Shown: piece by piece, positions 7,964 to 38,651 of the stretch
Position numbering within the stretch: position 1 is the stretch's first letter
Layout: the number at the start of each line of letters is the position of its first letter
Assembly: GCA_902825775.1 (NCBI GenBank)
Contig: CADECF010000006.1
Span: forward strand, 155,759 to 219,758
Direction: 5' to 3'
Length of the DNA stretch: 64,000 nt
Source of the DNA: an uncultured Lysobacteraceae bacterium
GTDB taxonomy: Bacteria > Pseudomonadota > Gammaproteobacteria > Xanthomonadales > Xanthomonadaceae
The notes under the pieces: generated by a model
Databases searched by the model: none
Seen by the model: only the letters and a program-made list of their open reading frames with translations
Told to the model about the DNA's origin: nothing
Program-made: the position numbers and the translations under genes

Positions 7964-8127
7964 AGCCGTCATTCCCGCGAAGGCGGGAATCCAGTGACTT
8001 GAAGGCCCTCGCCAGAAGGCGCCGAAACTATCGGCAATGTCGGGCGCCCTCACCAACCCCTCTCCCGCAAGCGGGGAGGGGTAAAGCGTAAGTCGCCGGA
8101 TTCCCGCGTTCGCCGGAATGACGGCTT
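7964..8127. repeat. Nested palindromic repeats
   Basis: Two arms of the CGTCATTCCCGCGAAGGCGG family (7964-7999 and 8092-8126) face each other and enclose one copy of a second family (CCCTCTCCCGCAAGCGGGGAGGG, about 8045-8080). No gene is seen in the gap from 7853 to 8142. Confidence 0.8.
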
Positions 8128-12480: not shown

Positions 12481-14031
12481 CTACAGCGAGTAGCTCGGCC
12501 GATCCGGCAGGCCGAGTTCGCGGCGCAGGCCGTTCTCGGTCAGGTCGATCGGGTTGTGGGTGGTGGCCGGCGTGCTGGGATCGCCGTCGAAATCGAACGG
12601 CTGCGCGCTCGTCTCCAGGCCTACCGCCTGGCGCTCGGCATTGGGCACCTGGCCGTTGTCCGGGCCGGTACCGCTATACGTGCCGGGTTGGAAGGTGCCG
12701 TTGACGCCGTTATAGGCATGCGACATCTCGTGATACAGCACGACCACCGGTGCCGGGAACGCGTCCATGTGGAAGGACGGGTTGTAGCTGATCTGCACGT
12801 CCGAGCCCTCGCCCGCCTTGCCGTTGCTGATCTCGGCATCGCCGCGGCCCAGCGTCTGCGCGTAGCCGTTCTGTTCGTTGGCCAATTCCTTGATCGTCAC
12901 GGTGTTGCCGTTGGCCGCTGCCGCATCGAACTCGGCGAGCATCTGCTGGCCGTTGGGCGAGCTGCGCAGGAATTCGATTTCGGCCTCGACGCGCTGGCGG
13001 AAGGCATCCGAACCTTCGACCTTGACGCCCTGCGTGCCGAGCTTGCTGTTGAGTTCGACGTTGACCACGACCTGCCCGTTGTCGCGCTGGCCGGCGGCGA
13101 AATTCACCGCATCCACGCCCTGCTGGGCATAGACCTTGTCGCTGTTGGTGACGCCTTCGACCGTATCGGTGCCGCCGCCGGTGTAGATGCGGTTGCCATC
13201 GGCGCCGCTGCGGATGATGTCGTCGTCCAGGCCGCCGGACAGCATGTTCTTGCCGGCGCCGCCGTCGAGATCGTCCTTGCCCTTGCCGCCTTCGAGGAAG
13301 TCGACGCCGTCGTTGCCGAGCATGGTGTCGTCGCCGTCGCCGCCGTAGACCACGTCGTCGCCCGCGCCGGCTTCGATCTTGTCGTTGCCGGTATTGCCGA
13401 AGATGTCGTCGCGGCCTGCGCCGGTGCTGATCGTATCGTCGCCCGCGCCGCCGTCGATGCGGTCGTCGCCAGCGCCGGTGGTGATGCTGTCGTCGCCGGC
13501 ACCGCCATCGACCACGATGTTGACCTTGACGTTGGGCGCGACGTTGATGGTGTCGTTGCCGGCGCCGGTGCGCAGGGTCAGTTCCTGATTCTCGGCCAGG
13601 CGCATTTCGTAGCTTTCGCCGTTGACAGACACGTCGAGCGTGCCGTCGTCGCGCTGGGTCACCTGCACGTCGTCGTTGCCGGTGCCCTTGGTGGTGACGA
13701 CCAACTGGTCGCTGCTGACATAGGTCTGGCCGAAGCCGGCCTCGGCGATGGTCTGCTCGCGAGTGACCGTGGACTGCTCGCCCTGCGCCAGTTCGGCATT
13801 GCGGATGGTCTTGCCGTCCGGCGTCGAGGTCGACGGCTGACGGGTGCCGGTATCGCTGCCATCGACCGCGATCGCGTCGTCCGCGGCCGGGCGCGGCGAC
13901 GGCTCGACCGGATCGGGACCGGCGAGGGTCTGCGCCGGGCCGTTGGCCGTCAGCGCTTCCTGCTCGGCGGGATTGTCCCAATAGCTCGGCGCTTGCGAGG
14001 ACTGGACGGCGGGGTCGAACTGAACGGTCAT
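12481..14031 (-). CDS. RTX-repeat calcium-binding protein with C-terminal M91-type zinc metallopeptidase domain
   Basis: A 516-residue protein, probably secreted. Residues 1-100 are low-complexity and polar. Residues 155-290 contain about a dozen RTX nonapeptides (GGAGDD, GAGDDRIDG), which bind calcium after export. Residues 335-516 form a protease-like domain with HEMSH at 434-438 inside VVVLYHEMSHAYNG and a downstream glutamate in NAERQAVGL (Glu466). That is the HExxH plus E arrangement of the M91 family (NleD/XopG-type effectors). There is no N-terminal signal peptide, which fits export by a type I or other non-Sec system. No ABC exporter or membrane fusion partner lies in the window. The substrate is unknown. 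Confidence 0.8.
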   Translation of the reverse strand: MTVQFDPAVQSSQAPSYWDNPAEQEALTANGPAQTLAGPDPVEPSPRPAADDAIAVDGSDTGTRQPSTSTPDGKTIRNAELAQGEQSTVTREQTIAEAGFGQTYVSSDQLVVTTKGTGNDDVQVTQRDDGTLDVSVNGESYEMRLAENQELTLRTGAGNDTINVAPNVKVNIVVDGGAGDDSITTGAGDDRIDGGAGDDTISTGAGRDDIFGNTGNDKIEAGAGDDVVYGGDGDDTMLGNDGVDFLEGGKGKDDLDGGAGKNMLSGGLDDDIIRSGADGNRIYTGGGTDTVEGVTNSDKVYAQQGVDAVNFAAGQRDNGQVVVNVELNSKLGTQGVKVEGSDAFRQRVEAEIEFLRSSPNGQQMLAEFDAAAANGNTVTIKELANEQNGYAQTLGRGDAEISNGKAGEGSDVQISYNPSFHMDAFPAPVVVLYHEMSHAYNGVNGTFQPGTYSGTGPDNGQVPNAERQAVGLETSAQPFDFDGDPSTPATTHNPIDLTENGLRRELGLPDRPSYSL

Positions 14032-15133: not shown

Positions 15134-15880
15134 ATGGATGGCGTGCGTCCGGCTTTGTCTGCGAACGAATGGTCGGCGGTGCCATTGCAAACGCGCAACG
15201 CGAATGCGATGGCGGCCGCCGCTGCAGACGGCGACCTGGTCGCCCATCTCGAAGATCTCGCCGCGGACGACAAACTGGTGGATTTCCTCGGCCAGACCGA
15301 CGATGCGATCGCGCTGGCGCAAAGCGACCCCACCTTCGCAGAAACGCTCGATCCGCTTCTGGAACGCATCCAAGGCGCGCTGACGGCACTCCCCACCGGC
15401 AACCTGTCGCGCGCCGAGCGCGACGCCGTGGAATCCACGCAGGGCAAGCTCGATGCCTATCTGGGCACGGTGGAAGAACCGCCGGGCGGCGGCGAAGTCC
15501 CCGGCGGCGGCCTGGAAGCGCATGAAGAGGCCGGCAGCCACCTGATCGAACGCCATGTCGGCAAAAGCGAACAGGACCTCATCGATCGGCTGAACAGGGA
15601 AAACATCAGCGCATCGTCCAGCTTCCGCGATCTGCAGGCGGCCGAGCACTTCGTCGCCGCCACCATCGCCGAAAACCAGGCGCAGGTGGACGCCTGGGTC
15701 GACGGACAAGGCGGCAACCGGCTCGTGCTGGAGGAACGCTTCGACGCCAGCACCGGCATTTCGGTGAAACGCGGCGACACACAAGCCGAAGATGTTTTTT
15801 CGGTGAAACTCGTGCTGGAACGCTCCGACAAGCTCGGCATCGGCTATAGAATCGTAACCGGGTACCCGACCGCGCCATGA
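15134..15880 (+). CDS. Polymorphic toxin with C-terminal RNase A-like (CdiA-CT type) domain
   Basis: A 248-residue protein. Residues 127-248 match the bacterial CdiA-CT RNase A-like fold (PF18431). The catalytic-type histidine segment is AGSHLIERHVGKS (His136, His141, Lys144), followed by the ASSSFRD strand (160-166) and the closing GYRIVTGYP (237-245). These toxins degrade RNA in a target cell. The first 110 residues are helical and match nothing I know; a glycine/proline linker (PPGGGEVPGGG) separates the two halves. There is no CdiA, Rhs, VgrG or signal sequence, so the route of delivery is open. The next gene overlaps by ATGA and looks like its immunity protein. Confidence 0.8.
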   Translation: MDGVRPALSANEWSAVPLQTRNANAMAAAAADGDLVAHLEDLAADDKLVDFLGQTDDAIALAQSDPTFAETLDPLLERIQGALTALPTGNLSRAERDAVESTQGKLDAYLGTVEEPPGGGEVPGGGLEAHEEAGSHLIERHVGKSEQDLIDRLNRENISASSSFRDLQAAEHFVAATIAENQAQVDAWVDGQGGNRLVLEERFDASTGISVKRGDTQAEDVFSVKLVLERSDKLGIGYRIVTGYPTAP

Positions 15881-16179
15881 GCGTTCTGCAGATGAGCGAT
15901 TTCCCCGCGTTGCGCAACTTCCTGTCCGCCTATTTCCATCAGGACTGGGCCGTCGAGCACGACACCCCGGGCGCGGTCGTCGATTACTTCGTCGAAGGCG
16001 AATCGGCGCATCAAGTGGCGCAGCTGCGCGACGAGATCGCGCGCTTGCTGGCGCAGGGTATGGACGAGGACGAACTCGCCGCGCAGGTGCACGAACTGGG
16101 CAGCGAATACGATCCGAGCCTGGATGGCGGCAACTACCAGGACTGGCTGCGCGACATCGAAGAGCGCCTGGTCGCCTGA
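15877..16179 (+). CDS. CdiI-like immunity protein (PF18593 type)
   Basis: A 100-residue acidic protein with the family pattern: FPALRNFLSAYFHQDW at residues 9-24, a central DEIARLLAQ and a C-terminal LGSEYDPSLDGG followed by WLRDIEERL. Members bind and neutralise a cognate toxin. The start codon overlaps the toxin stop codon (ATGA), so toxin and antidote are translationally coupled. A repeat pair follows. Confidence 0.85.
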   Translation: MSVLQMSDFPALRNFLSAYFHQDWAVEHDTPGAVVDYFVEGESAHQVAQLRDEIARLLAQGMDEDELAAQVHELGSEYDPSLDGGNYQDWLRDIEERLVA

Positions 16180-16334: not shown

Positions 16335-16453
16335 AAATGAACTCGCAGCTGGAGTCGCTCCTCAAGGAACGGACCGAGCCCTAGGGTTTTCCCCGGTTAA
16401 CGCCCCATCGCCGCATCCGCACAATGCGCGGCATCGATGGCGGAGTTGGCGGC

Positions 16454-17359
16454 ATGTTCGATCCCGTACGCATCAGCGATCCGCGAAACGACGTTGCGCA
16501 GGCTACGCAGCCGCAAGCGAGCCCGTCGGATCCGGAATCCGTACAAACCGCGCTTCGCGATGCGCCGTTGACCGATCGCGCGCAGACCGCATTGGCGGCG
16601 ACGCAGCGCATGGACGACGGCGAACTGTTCGCGCTCGCCGCCAGCGAGCGAGGCACGCAGGCCTTGGCCGCCCTCGATCACGCACTCGCCGACGCCCCGC
16701 CCGCGCTCGCCGGCGTACGCGAACAGCGCGTGCGTCTGGGCGATGCCCTGGACCGCAGCCCGCATTCGGTCGACGCGAATCCCATCGGTTCGCCATCCGC
16801 GCCGGCGTTTCCGGCGATCGTGCCGTTCGGCGCGCTCGCGCAGATCTTCCCGGCGACGGCTGCGGCCACGCAGACCACGGCGCACATCGGCGACAACACC
16901 GTCACCTGGACCAACGACAGCCAGGGCCGCCCGATCCGCGCCGAAGCGGATCTGACCGAAGTGTTCGAAGGCATCGACCGCAGCAGCGAGGAAACCGACG
17001 CGCAGCGCGAAGCCGCCGACCGCGGCATCGAAGGCGACCAGGGCGGCCATCTGATCGGCCACCGCTTCGTCAAGGATCAGGGCCTGAAGAACCTGTTCCC
17101 GCAGAACGGCAACTTCAACGTCAGCGCTTACAAGACGCTGGAGAACGAGTGGGCCGATTGGATCGAAAGCGGCAAGGACGTGCATATCGCCGTCCAGCTG
17201 ACGCCGAAGGATCAGGACCGGCCGAACCACGTGCGCGTGTCCTACGAAGTGACCGACCCCGCTTCCGGCGACGTGGTGTACGATCAACGCGTGACCTTCC
17301 GCAACGAAGCCGGCCAGCATTACGACCGCGTGCCGCGTGCGGACATGGCCAATTATTGA
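16454..17359 (+). CDS. Polymorphic toxin with C-terminal NS-type DNA/RNA endonuclease domain
   Basis: A 301-residue protein from the ATG at 16454, which has a GGAG at suitable spacing; an in-frame ATG at 16424 would add 10 residues. The last about 155 residues match the non-specific endonuclease family Endonuclea_NS_2 (PF13930). GDQGGHLIGHRF at about 194-205 holds the catalytic-type histidine, followed by NLFPQNGNFN and AYKTLENEWADW. The N-terminal 130 residues are helical, Ala/Asp-rich and not assigned. They share the composition, but no obvious sequence, of the first toxin. The protein probably degrades nucleic acid in rival cells. A small likely immunity gene follows after 22 bases. Confidence 0.8.
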   Translation: MFDPVRISDPRNDVAQATQPQASPSDPESVQTALRDAPLTDRAQTALAATQRMDDGELFALAASERGTQALAALDHALADAPPALAGVREQRVRLGDALDRSPHSVDANPIGSPSAPAFPAIVPFGALAQIFPATAAATQTTAHIGDNTVTWTNDSQGRPIRAEADLTEVFEGIDRSSEETDAQREAADRGIEGDQGGHLIGHRFVKDQGLKNLFPQNGNFNVSAYKTLENEWADWIESGKDVHIAVQLTPKDQDRPNHVRVSYEVTDPASGDVVYDQRVTFRNEAGQHYDRVPRADMANY

Positions 17360-17381
17360 CCACTGCAGGACCGCGTCCGCC

Positions 17382-17753
17382 ATGACCCAGGATGAGCTGA
17401 TCGTAGAAATCGGCCGGCTGATCGTCGCCGACGGCAAGGCGACCGCGCAGCCGTGGGATCGCTATGCGCTGATCGCGTACTACGACGGCGGCGTGTCCAA
17501 GCTCAACGGCTTCGGCTATGCGGGCGACGGCCGCGGCAGACCGGCGACGCCGGAAACTTTCGACCTGGAAGACCGGCTCGACGAATTGCGCGAAGCCACG
17601 CGCGTCGACGGCAAGCCGCCCTGGCGCGTCTGCGTTTTCCGGTTGGACCGGAAGACCGGCAAGGCGACGGTCGATTTCGAATACGACAACCCCGAACGCT
17701 GGTATGTGACGCCGCAGACCGCCAGCGAAATCGCAGAACGCGCACGCCCGTAA
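17382..17753 (+). CDS. Probable immunity protein, YezG/DUF600-like
   Basis: A 123-residue protein with strands YALIAYYDGGVSKLNGFGYA and WRVCVFRLDRKTGKATVDFEY, followed by RWYVTP. These resemble the YezG-like (DUF600) immunity family found beside nuclease toxins. The start is set at the ATG closest to the toxin stop. The family assignment is tentative; its position directly behind a nuclease toxin is the stronger argument for immunity. Confidence 0.6.
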   Translation: MTQDELIVEIGRLIVADGKATAQPWDRYALIAYYDGGVSKLNGFGYAGDGRGRPATPETFDLEDRLDELREATRVDGKPPWRVCVFRLDRKTGKATVDFEYDNPERWYVTPQTASEIAERARP

Positions 17754-17851
17754 CCGATGTCATCGTATTGTTCGGTTCCTGCATAACGCGTTCTTCGCCC
17801 CAGGATCGGTCTAGGTTCGGCATCTCCTTCCTCGCCGCAGCGCCTGCCGCA

Positions 17852-18841
17852 TCAGTCCTTCGATATGGCTACGGCAAGCGGCTCATTCCGAAGTGAATGC
17901 GAAAGATCGTAAAAGGCGCGCATCGCGATCGGCCAATCCTTCGCCGCGCGCGCAGCCGTCGCCGGCGATCGCGCAAGATGGCTATGGCGCAGTTCCACTG
18001 CCGTATCGTTTCCACGGGGAAGCAAGCGCCATCGAAGCAGCGATTCCGGCTCCGCCGCCAAGAGTCCGGAGTGCACGGCTGAGAACGACATCTCCAGTAG
18101 CGAAGGCGCCTCGACGGCATGGAACGTTCCGGTGAGGGCTGGCGTACGGTTCGCCGAACGATAGGTGTAGCCACTGCCGGCGACGGGAGGCGCATCGGGC
18201 GTCACGCCGAAGAGCCAGCGGGGTATGTACGCCGGGTCCGTGAGTATCCTCCATGCCTCGGCCATCGTCGCAGGCACGACGATTGAGAAATCCAGATCCG
18301 CCGAGCGGACCATGCTCTCCAGCCAGTCCAGCGCGTCGGCGGCGGCTTCATGAAATGCGAGACGGCCGATCGTCGCACTATCGACGAAGCCCGCATCGGC
18401 CATAGCATCGATCAAAGCGGCGAGCGGCCGGTAGAACTGTCCTACGTTTACGATGGCGACCGGCTTGATCGACAGCCCGAGGTGCGCGCGCACCAGGACA
18501 TCCGCCAGCTCGTCGAGAGTCCCCACGCCACCCGGTAGAACGACGAACGCGTCTGCGCGCTCGAATAACGCAGCTTTGCGCTCAGCGAGACTGTCGACGA
18601 TGAGCAATTCGGTGATCGAATCCGCAGCGATCTCGCGCCCCGACAGAACCCGTGGAAGCACGCCCGTCACCCGCCCACCGGACGCTAGCGCCTGTGCGGC
18701 GAGCGCGCCCATCATGCCTACCGAAGCCCCGCCATAAACCAGCTCATGCCCACGGCGTACGAGAGCCTCGCCGAACGAGCGCGCAGCCTCCAGATGCGGC
18801 GCTCCGCCTGGCCTGGATCCGCAAAAGACACAGATGCGCAT
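17852..18841 (-). CDS. LOG family cytokinin phosphoribohydrolase fused to an SRPBCC domain
   Basis: A 329-residue fusion. Residues 1-178 form a complete LOG protein (MRICVFCGSRPG start, VYGGASVGMMG at 35-45, ERKAALFERADAF, and the signature PGGVGTLDEL at 103-112). LOG enzymes remove ribose 5-phosphate from cytokinin nucleotides and release the active free base. Residues 184-320 form an SRPBCC/AHSA1-like ligand-binding domain (VVPATMAEAWRILTDPAYIPRW). The ATG at 18841 is preferred because it follows GGAAG; the ATG at 18883 would overlap the divergent VOC gene. It lies downstream of ipt, P450 and isomerase genes on the same strand, which supports a cytokinin role. Confidence 0.85.
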   Translation of the reverse strand: MRICVFCGSRPGGAPHLEAARSFGEALVRRGHELVYGGASVGMMGALAAQALASGGRVTGVLPRVLSGREIAADSITELLIVDSLAERKAALFERADAFVVLPGGVGTLDELADVLVRAHLGLSIKPVAIVNVGQFYRPLAALIDAMADAGFVDSATIGRLAFHEAAADALDWLESMVRSADLDFSIVVPATMAEAWRILTDPAYIPRWLFGVTPDAPPVAGSGYTYRSANRTPALTGTFHAVEAPSLLEMSFSAVHSGLLAAEPESLLRWRLLPRGNDTAVELRHSHLARSPATAARAAKDWPIAMRAFYDLSHSLRNEPLAVAISKD

Positions 18842-18881
18842 GCTAGCTTCCGCCCTCGGGAAGCCGATATACAATTCGGCC

Positions 18882-19235
18882 ATGGAGACGATGCCGGTAG
18901 CGTGGTTCGAGATTGGAACGCATTGCGCGCAAGAGCTCGAGAAGTTCTATCGCGATGTGTTCTTGTGGAAGTTCCGCACCGATGCGAGCTTCGATGGACA
19001 TTCGATCGTCGAGACTGGCGAAGGCGGCCTGCGTGGAGCCATGTGGAGCATTGCGGACGACATCCTGCCTTACGCCTGTCCGTACATACGCGTGCAGGAC
19101 CTGGAATCGACGGTGCAGAAAGCGGTCGCTGCAGGCGGCAGGGAATTGCTGGCGCCACGCCCTGGTCCGGGTACGCTGCGGTTCGCGCACATTGCCGATC
19201 CGGAAGGCAATCGCATCGGGCTGTTCCAGATCTGA
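18882..19235 (+). CDS. VOC family protein inside the cytokinin cluster
   Basis: A 117-residue VOC protein (VAWFEIGTHCAQELEKFYRDVFLW near the N-terminus, ADPEGNRIGLFQI at the end). It is the only gene in the cluster on the plus strand, squeezed between LOG (divergent, 40 bases away) and the isomerase (convergent, 5 bases away). The start could also be the ATG at 18891. A TATACAAT box lies only about 7 bases before the ATG, so a leaderless transcript is possible. Its ligand is unknown. Confidence 0.75.
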   Translation: METMPVAWFEIGTHCAQELEKFYRDVFLWKFRTDASFDGHSIVETGEGGLRGAMWSIADDILPYACPYIRVQDLESTVQKAVAAGGRELLAPRPGPGTLRFAHIADPEGNRIGLFQI

Positions 19236-19240
19236 AGCGT

Positions 19241-20296
19241 TCATCCCGTTGTCTCCGCAATACGTCCCCGAAGCGCGGCGAGATCGCGAGCGCCCGTCAG
19301 GAACATCGCAGTACGCAGTTCCTGCTCGAAACAGGCGACCTCGAATTCGCATTCGGCGATGCCGACCGCGGCGGCTTTCAGGAAGGGGAGAGCCATAGCG
19401 ACGGTCGAGGCGCCGAGCGCGAGCGCACGCGCGCCATCCAATCCCGTACGAAGCCCGCCAGAGGCGACGATCGGACGGCCTGCGCCGTATCGCAGGCAGT
19501 TCTGCAGACTGGTGGCCGAATCGACCCCCCACTGAGCGAACGTGACCCCGAGTCTCGCCGAAAGCGGGCCTTTTGCGCGTAGCGCCTCTATAAGCGGCCA
19601 GGACGTCCCGCCGAAACCCGCGCTTTCAATGAAGGCGAGGTCCGCGTCGGCAAGCCGTTCGAGTGCGCTGCGGGAGAATCCGCACCCTACTTCTTTAACG
19701 CCGCAAGGAAGGCCGATCTCCTGCACCGCCTTGGAGATGGCCTCGGCGAGGCCGCCGAAGCAGGTATCGCCTTCAGGCTGCACCGCTTCTTGAGCGGCAT
19801 TGAGGTGAAACACGACGGCATCGGCGCCGACGCGCCGAGCCGCATCCTCGATCTGTGCGGGCGACATGCCACGGCGCAGTTGCACTGCACCGATGTTCGC
19901 GATCAGGAGAATATCGGGTGCGACGTCGCGGATCTGGTAAGTCTCGGTCAATCCGGGATCTTCGACCATCGCGCGTTGCGACCCCAGGCACATGCCTATA
20001 CCGGTCGCCTGGGCCGTCGCGGCAAGCCGCTTGTTGATCTCTCCGGCTTTGGCGGAACCGCCGGTCATGCTGCCGATCAGCAGAGGGATGCGCAGGCGTT
20101 TTCCGAGGAAGGAAACCGTGGTGTCGATCCCGTCGAGGTCGACCTCCGGAAGCGCCTGATGTTCCAGCACGATGTGCGAGAACGGACCGTCGGGTCGTCG
20201 CCCTGGTTCCACCGCTGCTTCACGCACGATCGTGAGATGCTCGTCCTTGCGCGCGCTCGTGGTGCGCGCGGCTTCGGCTGCCTGTTCGGTCGTCAT
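19241..20296 (-). CDS. fni: Isopentenyl-diphosphate delta-isomerase, type 2 (FMN-dependent)
   Basis: A 351-residue enzyme that interconverts IPP and DMAPP using reduced FMN and NAD(P)H. Characteristic segments are RKDEHL (17-22), LLIGSMTGG, GLCLGSQ-like GIGMCLGSQRAMV, HLNAAQEAVQPEGD, and GVKEVGCGFS followed by a glycine-rich FMN phosphate site (ASGGLRTGLDGARALALGA). The start codon overlaps the P450 stop (ATGA). DMAPP is the prenyl donor for the isopentenyltransferase two genes upstream, so the likely job is to feed cytokinin synthesis. Confidence 0.93.
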   Translation of the reverse strand: MTTEQAAEAARTTSARKDEHLTIVREAAVEPGRRPDGPFSHIVLEHQALPEVDLDGIDTTVSFLGKRLRIPLLIGSMTGGSAKAGEINKRLAATAQATGIGMCLGSQRAMVEDPGLTETYQIRDVAPDILLIANIGAVQLRRGMSPAQIEDAARRVGADAVVFHLNAAQEAVQPEGDTCFGGLAEAISKAVQEIGLPCGVKEVGCGFSRSALERLADADLAFIESAGFGGTSWPLIEALRAKGPLSARLGVTFAQWGVDSATSLQNCLRYGAGRPIVASGGLRTGLDGARALALGASTVAMALPFLKAAAVGIAECEFEVACFEQELRTAMFLTGARDLAALRGRIAETTG

Positions 20297-21462
20297 GGCG
20301 AAGCATCCCATTCGAGCGGTATCCGGTCCCAGCCGCCGAGCGACGCATGAGGCGCTCTGCGCCGCGGCGGCTCTGAGAAACGTAGGCCGGGCAACCCGGA
20401 GAGCGCTTCGAGAACAAGCTCTATTTCCAAACGGGCGAGCGTAGAGCCCGGACAGGCGTGCTCGCCCCGTCCGAAGCCTAGGTGTGCTTTCCGGCTCGCC
20501 GGACCAGGAAGGAAACGTTGCGCATCTGACCCCATCTGCGCCGCATCGCGATTGGCACAGGCGTAATCGATCGCGACGCGATCGCCGGCCGCAACCGTCA
20601 CACCTCCTATCGCCGTATCTCGATCGACTCGGCGGAAAAGGAGCTGAACCGGCGGGTCTAGCCGCAGCGCTTCTTCGACGAACGCCCTGCGCGCCGACGC
20701 TTCGGCGCGCACGGCAGCGTGATATTGCGGATACTCGACGAACGCAACCGCGGCGTTGGCGATGCCCAGCGTGGTCGTCTCGTGACCCGCGACGAGCACG
20801 CCCATAGCCAATCTGACTTGCTCGACGCGGGAAAGCATCCCTTCGCTTCGAGCCCTGACGAGAGCGCCCAGCAGGTCGTCCGCGGCGGCATCGTGGTTTT
20901 GCAGCGTCTCGCTCATGAATCGCTGGAGCGAAAGGTAGGACTGCGCGCAGCGGACGAGTTCGCCCTCGGGCGCCGAACTCGATTGCAACGCCATCCAGTC
21001 GTCGCACCAGGCCTTGACCTGGCAGAGGCTGCCCGAAGACATCGACATGCCGAGCACTGCCCCGATCATGGCGAGCGGCAGCGGCGATGCAATCTTGGAA
21101 ACCAACTCCATGGCGCCGTGCGGACGGACCTCGTCGATCGCCGTCCGCACGAAATTCCGTGCGGGCTCCCGTAACGACTTGACCCGCGCATTGCTGAAGA
21201 AAGGCGCGATCAACTGCCGGAAACGCTTATGCTCGGGCGCATCGTTATCGATGAGCGTCCTTGCATAAGGTAGTCCCTGTTCCGCCAGGAGCTTTCCTGC
21301 AAGCCCCTTGTGGGATGGCCTGGCTTTCAGGACATCCGCGGAGGAGAAAGTCTCCGGCGACAGCAGTACCTGCGCGGCTTCGGCAAAAGATTCCGTGTAC
21401 CAATCCGCTTCCACGGATATGCCCCCGCAGGCTCGACCCGACGAAACCCGAGTCCTTTTCAT
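20293..21462 (-). CDS. Cytochrome P450 of the cytokinin cluster
   Basis: A 389-residue soluble bacterial P450. All hallmarks are present: I-helix AGHETTT at 225-231, K-helix EEALR (ExxR) at 263-267, and the heme loop FGRGEHACPG at 330-339 with Cys337 as ligand. The start overlaps the ipt stop, and the stop overlaps the isomerase start, both as ATGA. Context suggests hydroxylation of an isopentenyl-adenine side chain to a zeatin type, as proposed for FasA of Rhodococcus fascians; this is inference. No ferredoxin gene lies beside it, so electrons must come from elsewhere. Confidence 0.9.
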   Translation of the reverse strand: MKRTRVSSGRACGGISVEADWYTESFAEAAQVLLSPETFSSADVLKARPSHKGLAGKLLAEQGLPYARTLIDNDAPEHKRFRQLIAPFFSNARVKSLREPARNFVRTAIDEVRPHGAMELVSKIASPLPLAMIGAVLGMSMSSGSLCQVKAWCDDWMALQSSSAPEGELVRCAQSYLSLQRFMSETLQNHDAAADDLLGALVRARSEGMLSRVEQVRLAMGVLVAGHETTTLGIANAAVAFVEYPQYHAAVRAEASARRAFVEEALRLDPPVQLLFRRVDRDTAIGGVTVAAGDRVAIDYACANRDAAQMGSDAQRFLPGPASRKAHLGFGRGEHACPGSTLARLEIELVLEALSGLPGLRFSEPPRRRAPHASLGGWDRIPLEWDASP

Positions 21463-22187
21463 GGCGTCGCCATCATCGCTATGTCCCGAACCGCCGTCGC
21501 CTGGCGCGGAAACAACTTTCCGAAGATGAAACGCTGCCTAGCCGCATAAGCGAGGTGCGCACTGACGATACGGGGGAAAACCCGCTTGGCGATCTCCTCT
21601 GCGGCGAGCGCGCCGGGCCGACAGCCGACCTCGTCGCATACCGCGGCAATCGCGTCGTAACCACAAATGGACGACACGAAAGAGCGGTTCGGCGCGACCG
21701 GCCAAGCGCGGTCCGCTTCGTCGATCATCGAAGCGGCCGAAGGGTCGAGCATCCGATGAACGCGCGAAACGATGGCATGGATATGCGGCTCTGGTTCTCG
21801 ATCCACCATTTGCACGCGGCTGATCGCCGCCGCGACATCGGCATCCTTCATCAAAGATGCGATCAGCGATGTCGAGCCTCCTTCGAGGATGACTTCCTGG
21901 CAATCGGAACGAAGAAAACGCAAGATCCTGCGCACCTTTTCCAACGCCTCCACCGCGGACAATTCACCGGCGGCGACGGGGCGATTCTCCAGGAAATGCT
22001 TGCCGGGCCGAACTGGCGAATCGTCCCGGCCCGTGCCCACTCTCAGCTCGGGAAAAACCTGAAACCGATCGAGCACTACGATGGGGCAGCCCGAGCTTTC
22101 GGCTGCGGCTTCAGCGCTAGCCGATTTGCCTGCGCCTGTCGGGCCTACAAACAGCAATAATCTGGGATATCTGTCACGGTTCGCCAT
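21459..22187 (-). CDS. ipt: Adenylate isopentenyltransferase (cytokinin synthase)
   Basis: A 242-residue protein, the length of the bacterial Ipt/Tzs class rather than of tRNA-modifying MiaA (about 310). The P-loop GPTGAGKSASAEA lies at residues 15-27, followed by VVLDRFQVFPELRVGTGR, the conserved substrate-binding region of AMP isopentenyltransferases (MiaA has DSMQVY there). It transfers an isopentenyl group from DMAPP or HMBDP to AMP, the first step of cytokinin synthesis. It is the first gene of an operon with the P450 and isomerase (ATGA overlaps). The 246 bases upstream show no clear promoter. Confidence 0.88.
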   Translation of the reverse strand: MANRDRYPRLLLFVGPTGAGKSASAEAAAESSGCPIVVLDRFQVFPELRVGTGRDDSPVRPGKHFLENRPVAAGELSAVEALEKVRRILRFLRSDCQEVILEGGSTSLIASLMKDADVAAAISRVQMVDREPEPHIHAIVSRVHRMLDPSAASMIDEADRAWPVAPNRSFVSSICGYDAIAAVCDEVGCRPGALAAEEIAKRVFPRIVSAHLAYAARQRFIFGKLFPRQATAVRDIAMMATP

Positions 22188-22433
22188 ACATGCTCTCCCA
22201 TCCTTCTGCGAACAGAAGCGCCTCCCAGGACCCGTTGTCCTGCGCAGGCTGCATGTAAGACGGAAAAGCTAAAAAAATGGGCCATGACGCTTCAGCGGAG
22301 CACCCGAAAAAAAGCGGAGCGCTCGCAACCTTCTGGCGTTATCGCCCGGATGCGCGTTGGCCCATTCGAATCGGGGCAGCGCGCGCCTGCCGGAAACCTG
22401 GCCAGACATCGAACCCCGTTCGAAGCGCAGCAG

Positions 22434-37502: not shown

Positions 37503-38651
37503 ATGGAGTCCGCAATAGCCAGCGACGTAACCGTGACCGCCGCCGACGTGCTGGCGGCGCAGGCGCGTTTGCGGCGTTATCTCGACGTCACGCCGACGCA
37601 TTACGCGGAACGTTTCGGCTGCTGGCTGAAACTGGAGAACCTGCAACGCACCGGTTCCTACAAAGTTCGCGGCGCCTTGAATGCGCTGCTGGCGGCGCGC
37701 GAACGCGGCGACGAGCGTACCGTTATCGCGGCCTCCGCGGGCAACCACGCACAAGGCCTGGCTTGGGCCGCGTACCGGCTCGGCGTGCATGCGATCACGG
37801 TCATGCCGCGCTGCGCGCCGGAAACCAAGATCGCCGGCGTCGCGCACTGGGGCGCCACCGTACGCCTGCACGGCGACAGCTACGACGAGGCCAAGGCCTT
37901 CGCCCGCGAGCTCGCCGGACAGCACGATTACCGCCTGCTGTCGGCCTTCGACGACCGCGACGTGATCGCCGGCCAAGGTACGGTCGGCCTGGAACTGGCG
38001 GCACTGGCGCCGGATGTGGTGCTGGTGCCGATCGGCGGCGGCGGCCTGGCGGCGGGTGTCGCTCTCGCGTTGAGATCGCAAGGCGTGCGCATCGTCGGCG
38101 CGCAAGTGGAAGGCGTCGACGCGATGGCGAGAGCGTTGCGTGGCGACCGCAACTTGCGCGAACCCGCCGTTACGCTGGCGGACGGCGTCCGCGTCAAGGA
38201 GCCCGGCTATCTGACGCAATACGTGTTGGCGTCATTGTTGGACGACATCGTCATCGTGCGCGAAGCCGAATTGCGCGAAACCTTGGTGCGGTTGGCGCTG
38301 GAAGAACACGTGATCGCCGAGGGCGCCGGCGCATTGGCGCTCGCCGCAGGCCGGCGCGTGGCCGGCAAGCGCAAGTGCGCAGTCGTTTCGGGCGGAAATG
38401 TCGATGCCGGCGTCCTTGCAAATCTGTTATCGGAAGTGCGGCCCCGCCCGCCGCGCAAACCGCGACGTCGGGCTCAAGAGCGCGCTTTGCTCAAGCCCTC
38501 TCCCGCTTGCGGGAGAGGGTTGGGTGAGGGCGCGCGAACGATCCAGATCGCGCCGAAAGATTCTGGAGAGAAGGCAAAGCCACTGGATTCCCGCCTTCGC
38601 GGGAATGACGGCCAAACAAAAAGCAACGTCTTAGAGGAGACCTGCGCATGA
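37503..38651 (+). CDS. ilvA: Threonine deaminase, short form without regulatory domain
   Basis: A 382-residue PLP enzyme converting threonine to 2-oxobutyrate. The PLP lysine is in [10 protein letters not shown] (about residue 50), with [11 protein letters not shown] and the phosphate loop IGGGGLAAG intact. The catalytic core ends near residue 311. The about 170-residue allosteric domain of classical biosynthetic IlvA is missing, so isoleucine feedback inhibition by that route is unlikely. In its place is a basic tail (about 312-382) largely encoded by two palindromic repeats ([14 protein letters not shown] and [10 protein letters not shown]). Operon position shows a biosynthetic role. It overlaps leuA by ATGA. 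Confidence 0.92.
38496..38613 (+). repeat. Two palindromic repeats inside the 3' end of ilvA
   Basis: A CCCTCTCCCGCTTGCGGGAGAG repeat (38496-38532; here shown in part) and a CATTCCCGCGAAGGCGG repeat (38580-38613) lie within the ilvA reading frame and encode most of its C-terminal tail. Confidence 0.85.

What the first reader, a model, noticed from the sequence alone, without database searches (positions are those of the whole stretch)
17852..22187. Compact cytokinin biosynthesis cluster with its own DMAPP supply
Seen directly: an Ipt-length isopentenyltransferase, a complete P450 and a type 2 IPP isomerase follow one another with ATGA overlaps on the minus strand, and a LOG-family gene lies next on that strand. 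Known: Ipt makes iPRMP, LOG frees the base, and FasA-type P450s hydroxylate the side chain in the R. fascians fas locus. Inferred: a self-contained trans-zeatin-type pathway. The operon-linked isomerase is the unusual part, since an MEP-pathway bacterium does not need it, and it suggests dedicated DMAPP supply. No fasB-type ferredoxin, CKX or methyltransferase gene is present, so it is a reduced or separate lineage.
Basis: partly seen in the sequence, partly recalled or inferred. Interest (0 to 1): 0.88.

Follow-up and report, generated by a model that had tools for sequence, protein, structure and literature searches.

The report
Acquired cytokinin gene cassette with isomerase
A bacterium related to Xanthomonas has picked up a compact five-gene cassette that very probably makes cytokinin plant hormones from adenine nucleotides, and it carries its own enzyme for supplying the five-carbon side-chain precursor; the parts are known, but this combination was not seen in the relatives examined.

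Summary
In detail: ipt, a P450 and a type 2 IPP isomerase overlap by ATGA on the minus strand and a second LOG gene follows. All five genes lie in one 4.7 kb block absent from two sister species that keep both flanks. The Ipt is an adenylate Ipt, not MiaA (a separate miaA exists). Its pocket has Cys/Tyr where Tzs has Asp173/His214, so it probably uses DMAPP rather than HMBPP, which would give isomerase and P450 a reason to be there. The P450 is not a FasA orthologue. A linked isomerase is not unique: ptz-idi and the gibberellin operon are published, and type 1 isomerases lie near ipt in Ensifer, Litchfieldella, Cupriavidus, Nocardia and Rhizobium loci found here. A type 2 isomerase near ipt was found only here among 87 loci compared. 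Likely pathway: IPP to DMAPP, AMP to iPRMP, side-chain hydroxylation (least certain), release of the free base by LOG. New variant of a known kind.

The parts
21459..22187 (-). ipt: adenylate isopentenyltransferase, 242 aa; conserved T17, D40, R41, R142; C175 and Y214 at the places of Tzs D173 and H214
   Evidence: PF01745 111 bits; best solved relative 2ze5; residue table; trees
20293..21462 (-). cytochrome P450, 389 aa, ATGA overlap with ipt; N-terminus about 28 aa shorter than the closest relative
   Evidence: PF00067; 37.3% identity to Ensifer adhaerens pD P450; trees; frame check
19241..20296 (-). idi2: type 2 isopentenyl-diphosphate Delta-isomerase, 351 aa, ATGA overlap with P450; only IPP isomerase found in the genome
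   Evidence: TIGR02151 338 bits over cut-off 281; one Idi2 in own genome; no type 1 match
18882..19235 (+). VOC/glyoxalase-like protein, 117 aa, tail-to-tail with idi2 and head-to-head with LOG
   Evidence: PF18029 and PF00903 over cut-off; sequence
17852..18883 (-). LOG-SRPBCC fusion, 343 aa (alternative start ATG at 18841)
   Evidence: TIGR00730 142 bits residues 17-186 and PF08327 AHSA1 residues 205-323; an additional LOG besides a stronger one elsewhere
17745..22433 (.). whole block present here and absent from two sister species that keep both flanks
   Evidence: blastn of window against L128 (214 bp in its place) and L130 (about 110 bp)

Best explanation
A horizontally acquired, self-contained cytokinin cassette of the DMAPP-using design. 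Idi2 turns IPP into DMAPP; Ipt transfers the dimethylallyl group to N6 of AMP, giving iPRMP; the P450, with redox partners encoded elsewhere, oxidises the side chain, most likely to a zeatin-type nucleotide; the cassette's own LOG removes ribose 5-phosphate to give free iP/zeatin bases. Shown: gene content, overlaps, conserved catalytic residues, presence of all five genes in one block missing from two sisters, a separate MiaA, and recurrence of ipt with a P450 and/or an IPP isomerase elsewhere. Inferred: DMAPP preference (from pocket residues), the P450 reaction and its stereochemistry, the role of the SRPBCC domain and of VOC, and that the products act on plants.
For: PF01745 111 bits, while the miaA model gives 23 bits against a cut-off of 149; own miaA elsewhere (294 bits). 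Tzs catalytic residues kept; D173/H214 replaced by C/Y. PMC8234997 (sections 2.1 and 3 read whole) ties D173/H214 to HMBPP use and reports that NoIPT1, with V/Y there, uses HMBPP at under 1% of the DMAPP rate; the Nostoc loci here also show V/Y or L/Y in these columns, which supports the mapping. The genome has the MEP enzyme IspH, so an isomerase is not needed for housekeeping. P450 within 5 kb: 0 of 34 Ipts with the D/H pair, 8 of 53 without it. An isomerase of the other, unrelated type lies near ipt in Ensifer, Litchfieldella, Cupriavidus, Nocardia and Rhizobium. An additional LOG lies inside the same block.
Against: No activity data. The P450 is not a FasA orthologue, lacks about 28 N-terminal residues and has no redox partner in the block; redox partners elsewhere were not searched. 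LOG is below the CtkRMPhLog equivalog cut-off (141.7 of 300 bits). The D/H-P450 contrast weakens to p 0.10 after near-copies are removed, the D/H sequences form one group in the tree, and 22 of 87 loci have under 5 kb on one side. Isomerase linkage is not confined to the predicted DMAPP class: it also occurs in 6 of 34 D/H Ipts. In P. savastanoi deleting idi raised trans-zeatin and left the other cytokinins alone (PMC7472798, abstract and passages), although that Ptz is described there as Tmr/Tzs-like.
Confidence: 0.65

Rival explanations
1. iP-type cytokinin cassette whose P450 does something other than trans-hydroxylation (another position, cis product, further oxidation), so the end product is not trans-zeatin.
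For: P450 recruited separately from FasA: sisterhood with the FasA homologue rejected, IPT-linked P450s not one clade; the next relative in the tree, from a Streptomyces plasmid, sits in an unrelated gene set.
Against: The nearest P450, from Ensifer, also lies beside an ipt and an isomerase; side-chain hydroxylation is the only P450 step for cytokinins in the sections and passages of PMC8234997 that I saw.
Confidence: 0.22
2. The cassette makes a prenylated adenine or nucleoside specialised metabolite (for example an antimetabolite) rather than a plant hormone; SRPBCC and VOC add tailoring or self-protection.
For: SRPBCC and VOC have no place in the fas homologue examined; a Streptomyces plasmid Ipt lies among genes with no annotated LOG, P450 or CKX; the block lies beside CDI-type toxin/immunity genes.
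Against: LOG inside the block; three of the other genes have simple cytokinin-pathway readings; none of the five proteins is a transferase other than Ipt or a transporter.
Confidence: 0.12
3. The cassette is decaying or inactive: the P450 lacks an N-terminal stretch and the block was found in one species only.
For: About 28 residues missing; long end branches of Ipt (1.56) and P450 (1.51); 1 of 4 genomes of the genus.
Against: All five frames open, catalytic residues of Ipt intact, tight ATGA overlaps kept.
Confidence: 0.1
4. The Ipt is a diverged MiaA acting on tRNA.
For: The tree alone does not firmly exclude attachment on the MiaA branch (AU p 0.077).
Against: Model scores; Arg at the Tzs Arg34 place in every Ipt compared and Ser in the three MiaA rows; 242 aa; a separate full MiaA.
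Confidence: 0.02

Closest known systems
ptz-idi of Pseudomonas syringae pv. savastanoi and relatives (PMC7472798; abstract and passages seen)
   Same: Adenylate Ipt gene with an IPP isomerase gene, ancestrally linked; both needed for full tumours.
   Different: No P450 is mentioned in what I saw; Ptz is described there as related to Tmr/Tzs and likely HMBPP-preferring. Here the isomerase is type 2 and overlaps a P450 gene.
fas operon of Rhodococcus fascians / Streptomyces turgidiscabies (homologue L101)
   Same: Ipt plus P450 for a DMAPP-then-hydroxylate route.
   Different: P450 not orthologous; no ferredoxin-transketolase pair, CKX or methyltransferase here; L101 has no isomerase match within 6 kb of ipt; pocket S/H there, C/Y here.
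Ensifer adhaerens NER9 plasmid pD ipt / idi (type 1) / P450 (L040)
   Same: Same three activities together; nearest P450 (37%); Ipt pocket I/Y.
   Different: Isomerase is type 1 (NUDIX), P450 on the opposite strand, no LOG match in the 17 kb read; the two Ipts as sisters are disfavoured (AU p 0.025).
NoIPT1 of Nostoc PCC 7120 (PMC8234997, section 2.1 read)
   Same: Tyr at the Tzs His214 place, non-Asp at 173; little activity with HMBPP in vitro.
   Different: The six cyanobacterial loci here show no P450 or isomerase match.
Bacterial gibberellin operon (PMC7273348, passages seen; likely homologue L163)
   Same: Hormone operon in the same bacterial family with P450s and a type 2 isomerase; the paper presumes it balances IPP/DMAPP.
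   Different: Diterpene pathway with prenyl diphosphate synthase and cyclase; its Idi2 is 43.5% identical to the window's.

Membership tests
Bacterial adenylate isopentenyltransferase (PF01745) | Over the family cut-off, with Thr10/Asp33/Arg34/Arg138 of Tzs conserved | tested here: met
   111 bits against 20; T17, D40, R41, R142
Bacterial adenylate isopentenyltransferase (PF01745) | Distinct from the genome's MiaA | tested here: met
   MiaA 294 bits at another place; miaA model 23 bits against 149 on this protein; the tree alone leaves a basal position open (AU p 0.077)
Bacterial adenylate isopentenyltransferase (PF01745) | Prenylates AMP | not testable with these tools
   needs an enzyme assay
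Tzs/Tmr type (HMBPP-using) | Asp173 and His214 | tested here: not met
   Cys175 and Tyr214; clade with three Xanthomonas-family Tzs-type Ipts rejected, AU p 3e-6
fas-type cytokinin operon | FasA-orthologous P450 | tested here: not met
   28.1% identity; sisterhood rejected, AU p 0.004
fas-type cytokinin operon | FasB/FasC ferredoxin-transketolase pair and CKX | tested here: not met
   none among the five proteins of the block; present in L101
ptz-idi type | IPP isomerase linked to ipt | tested here: met
   idi2 is the third gene of the overlapping trio
ptz-idi type | Isomerase of type 1 (NUDIX), as in the other linked loci found here | tested here: not met
   TIGR02151 type 2; no type 1 match in the genome
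LOG phosphoribohydrolase | Family score and PGGxGTxxE motif (motif recalled) | tested here: met
   TIGR00730 142 bits against 96; PGGVGTLDE in the alignment
LOG phosphoribohydrolase | CtkRMPhLog equivalog cut-off | tested here: not met
   141.7 bits against 300
Gibberellin operon | CPS, KS and GGPP synthase genes beside the P450s | tested here: not met
   none among the five proteins of the block

The most novel reading that the evidence does not exclude
Bacterial cytokinin loci come in two biochemical designs. One uses an Ipt with the Asp/His pocket that takes HMBPP and needs no oxidase. The other uses an Ipt that lacks the pair and takes DMAPP, around which P450s of unrelated lineages (and, less exclusively, IPP isomerases of both unrelated types) have been recruited repeatedly. 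This cassette is the most complete case of the second design seen here (isomerase, Ipt, P450 and LOG in 4.7 kb) and the only one with a type 2 isomerase, with a LOG-SRPBCC fusion that may bind or hand over the product.
Probability: 0.4. Interest if true: 0.66.

Novelty: new variant of a known kind. Interest (0 to 1): 0.5.

Why it matters
A 2021 review heads its section on trans-zeatin formation in bacteria 'Unclarified Pathways' (PMC8234997, section 3). A four-enzyme cassette with a predicted DMAPP-type Ipt, a P450 unrelated to FasA and its own isomerase makes the DMAPP-then-hydroxylate route directly testable in E. coli, and would show that precursor supply and side-chain oxidation have been added to cytokinin synthesis several times independently.

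Tried and rejected
Ipt as MiaA: rejected on model scores, key residues and a separate MiaA; the tree test alone left a basal position open (AU p 0.077). Ipt from the Tzs-like Ipts of Xanthomonas: rejected (AU p 3e-6). Other clade tests of the window Ipt: with the 16 D/H rows alone p 1e-6, with L104 added 0.0005, with L104 and L056 added 0.035, with Ensifer 0.025, with Litchfieldella 0.10 (not rejected). None is corrected for multiple testing. P450 as FasA orthologue: rejected. Idi2 as a piece of a gibberellin operon: none of the five proteins is a GA enzyme, and identity to nine Xanthomonadaceae Idi2 copies is only 40-43.5%. LOG-SRPBCC fusion elsewhere: of 398 genomes of the phylum 169 had a match at E 1e-30 or better, and no other listed match ran through the SRPBCC domain in an open frame (the match list was cut). 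L098, first taken for the fas operon, showed no P450; L101 is the fas operon. Promoter/terminator scan: no more hits than shuffles. Plasmid P450 relatives H48, H71, H85 and H35 had no annotated ipt within 4-6 kb. Structure predictions of Ipt and LOG-SRPBCC were unfinished at the last polls, so no fold evidence is used. The organism could not be named: records of its own genome may be left out of the named collections (note).

Rows dropped: L107 (short Ipt, 167 aa) from the cross-table and trees; near-copies (90% or more) for the 63-row set; 19 more Streptomyces/Lentzea rows thinned for the trees; five duplicate, partial or distant P450s and four further diverged ones. Neighbours were sought by tblastn with one query each for LOG, Idi1, Idi2 and VOC, so distant members can be missed.
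Full report
What is there. On the minus strand ipt (21459-22187), a P450 gene (20293-21462) and a type 2 IPP isomerase gene (19241-20296) follow one another with ATGA overlaps. A VOC/glyoxalase-like gene of 117 aa (18882-19235, plus strand) comes next, tail-to-tail with idi2, then a LOG gene (17852-18883, minus) whose protein carries a C-terminal AHSA1/SRPBCC domain. Scores are over the curated cut-offs for IPT (PF01745), P450 (PF00067), IPP_isom_2 (TIGR02151), TIGR00730 and AHSA1. The P450 is short at its N-terminus: window residue 21 aligns with about residue 49 of the closest relative, and the frame is open for 25 codons upstream without a start.

One block. Of 4 genomes of the genus only the window's own has this ipt (E 1e-9 or better). 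Two sisters, G300 (L128) and G299 (L130), align to the window up to 17744/17714 and again from 22434/22443, with 214 bp and about 110 bp in place of some 4.7 kb. The third, G301 (L129), aligns only on the ipt side of the site. So all five genes, LOG and VOC included, lie in one block with clean borders; loss from two sisters at the same place is the less simple alternative. GC content of the block (0.61-0.66) does not stand out from its surroundings. The genome seems to belong to the same GTDB family as Xanthomonas: G256 and G219 of its family have contigs of the same length as contigs of Xanthomonas sp. GPE 39 and X. axonopodis DSM 3585; this is an inference from contig lengths.

Not MiaA, not the Xanthomonas Ipt. 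The genome has a full MiaA elsewhere (294 bits), and the window protein scores 23 bits against a miaA cut-off of 149. The best solved relative is the isopentenyl transferase 2ze5 (E 4.7e-11; that it is Tzs is recalled). In the order, 126 of 299 genomes had a match at E 0.001 or better, but only three, the own one included, scored above 45 bits. In the family, 6 of 247 had a match at E 1e-9 or better. The Ipts of the other five carry the Tzs-type Asp/His pair, and grouping the window Ipt with three of them is rejected (AU p 3e-6). In the tree the window Ipt falls in a starred set of 23 rows (97/92) with cyanobacterial, Lentzea, Nocardia, Litchfieldella and fas-operon Ipts; its branch is long (1.56) and its exact place unsure. 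Attachment to the MiaA branch is not firmly excluded by the tree alone (AU p 0.077).

Substrate choice. One scan of genome contigs gave 86 relatives, of which 80 were kept. With seven other loci, minus one short sequence, plus the window, 87 Ipts were compared. All keep Thr10, Asp33, Arg34 and Arg138 of Tzs. At Asp173/His214 the window has Cys/Tyr. The place of D173 follows from the alignment with 2ze5; that of H214 from the family alignment, where the Nostoc rows show V/Y or L/Y and the fas homologue S/H, in keeping with V173/Y216 of NoIPT1 and Ala192/His235 of FasD in PMC8234997. That review (sections 2.1 and 3 read whole) states that these two residues set HMBPP use in Tzs and that NoIPT1 uses HMBPP at under 1% of the DMAPP rate. 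I therefore predict DMAPP use. By pocket class: D/H 34 (P450 within 5 kb in 0, isomerase within 6 kb in 6, LOG within 5 kb in 5); other/Tyr 17 (5, 5, 4); other/His 36 (3, 0, 32). P450 in D/H against the rest: Fisher p 0.020 for 87, 0.10 for the 63 left after removing near-copies; Tyr class against the rest p 0.006 and 0.015. These are not independent samples, one of the eight P450s (L061) is a weak hit about 3.7 kb away, 22 loci have under 5 kb on one side, and isomerases also occur in the D/H class.

The isomerase. The genome has IspH, no type 1 isomerase match, and one type 2 isomerase, this one. Ten of 247 genomes of the family have a type 2 isomerase; the one read closely (L163) sits among three P450s, a prenyl diphosphate synthase-like gene and a weakly cyclase-like gene (the last two below those models' cut-offs), as in a gibberellin operon, and is 43.5% identical to the window's. 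PMC7273348 (passages) reports an expressed and tested isomerase from that operon, presumed to balance IPP and DMAPP. A type 1 isomerase lies near ipt in Ensifer adhaerens pD, Litchfieldella anticariensis, Cupriavidus necator and Nocardia, all four over the TIGR02150 cut-off, and by similarity alone in six Rhizobium loci, L115-L120, some of them near-copies and some 2-5 kb from ipt. ptz-idi linkage is published (PMC7472798, abstract and passages).

The P450. Among 72,556 plasmid records the best match is the P450 beside ipt and idi in Ensifer pD, 37.3%. The two are sisters at 97/51 (not starred) inside a starred set of three (98/94). A FasA homologue from a fas operon (methyltransferase, P450, ferredoxin-transketolase, transketolase, Ipt, CKX) is 28.1% identical, and its sisterhood with the window P450 is rejected (AU p 0.004). 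The seven IPT-linked P450s as one clade are rejected (AU p 2.9e-7; L061 was left out). So oxidases seem to have been recruited to ipt several times, and the reaction of this one is inferred, not transferred by orthology.

LOG and the extras. The genome has a stronger LOG elsewhere (184 bits) and a weak third match (37 bits), so the cassette's LOG is an additional copy. It keeps the PGGxGTxxE motif. No SRPBCC match was found in the other 87 loci searched, and no listed match in 398 genomes of the phylum continued through the SRPBCC domain in an open frame (list cut). The role of SRPBCC and VOC is open; product binding or tailoring is speculation.

Most likely mechanism. IPP to DMAPP by Idi2; DMAPP plus AMP to iPRMP by Ipt; oxidation of the side chain by the P450 with redox partners from elsewhere (not searched); release of the free base by LOG. 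I put Ipt plus LOG making N6-prenyl adenine products at about 0.85, DMAPP preference at about 0.7, zeatin-type hydroxylation at about 0.6.

Print. In the listings of ten searches of the open PMC library (several listings were capped) I saw no report of a type 2 isomerase in a cytokinin locus or of a LOG-SRPBCC fusion. Most subscription papers are not in that library.

Noticed in passing
window 12481-14031 (-): Protein with RTX calcium-binding repeats and a C-terminal Peptidase_M91 ('effector protein') domain.
   Followed up: no
window 15134-16179 (+) and 16424-17753 (+): CdiA-CT RNAse A-like domain protein followed by a CdiI_2 immunity protein, then a non-specific endonuclease domain protein followed by an unknown 138 aa protein: CDI-type toxin/immunity genes directly beside the cassette.
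   Followed up: partly
L042 8920-10362 (Rhizobacter sp. Root1221): Single 480 aa protein with IPT and LOG domains fused, in a bacterium.
   Followed up: no
L048 8355-11088 (Litchfieldella anticariensis FP35): Type 1 IPP isomerase, Ipt and a convergent P450 side by side in a Halomonadaceae bacterium, Ipt with the same Cys/Tyr pair as the window.
   Followed up: partly
L128 10717-10930: The empty site in sister genome G300 holds an inverted pair of a repeat that is also matched elsewhere in the window, for example near 8030 and 38477-38552.
   Followed up: no
L045-L098, many Streptomyces loci: Many Streptomyces Ipts with an Asn/His pair have a LOG match about 2 kb downstream on the same strand, seemingly a separate actinobacterial cluster type.
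   Followed up: no
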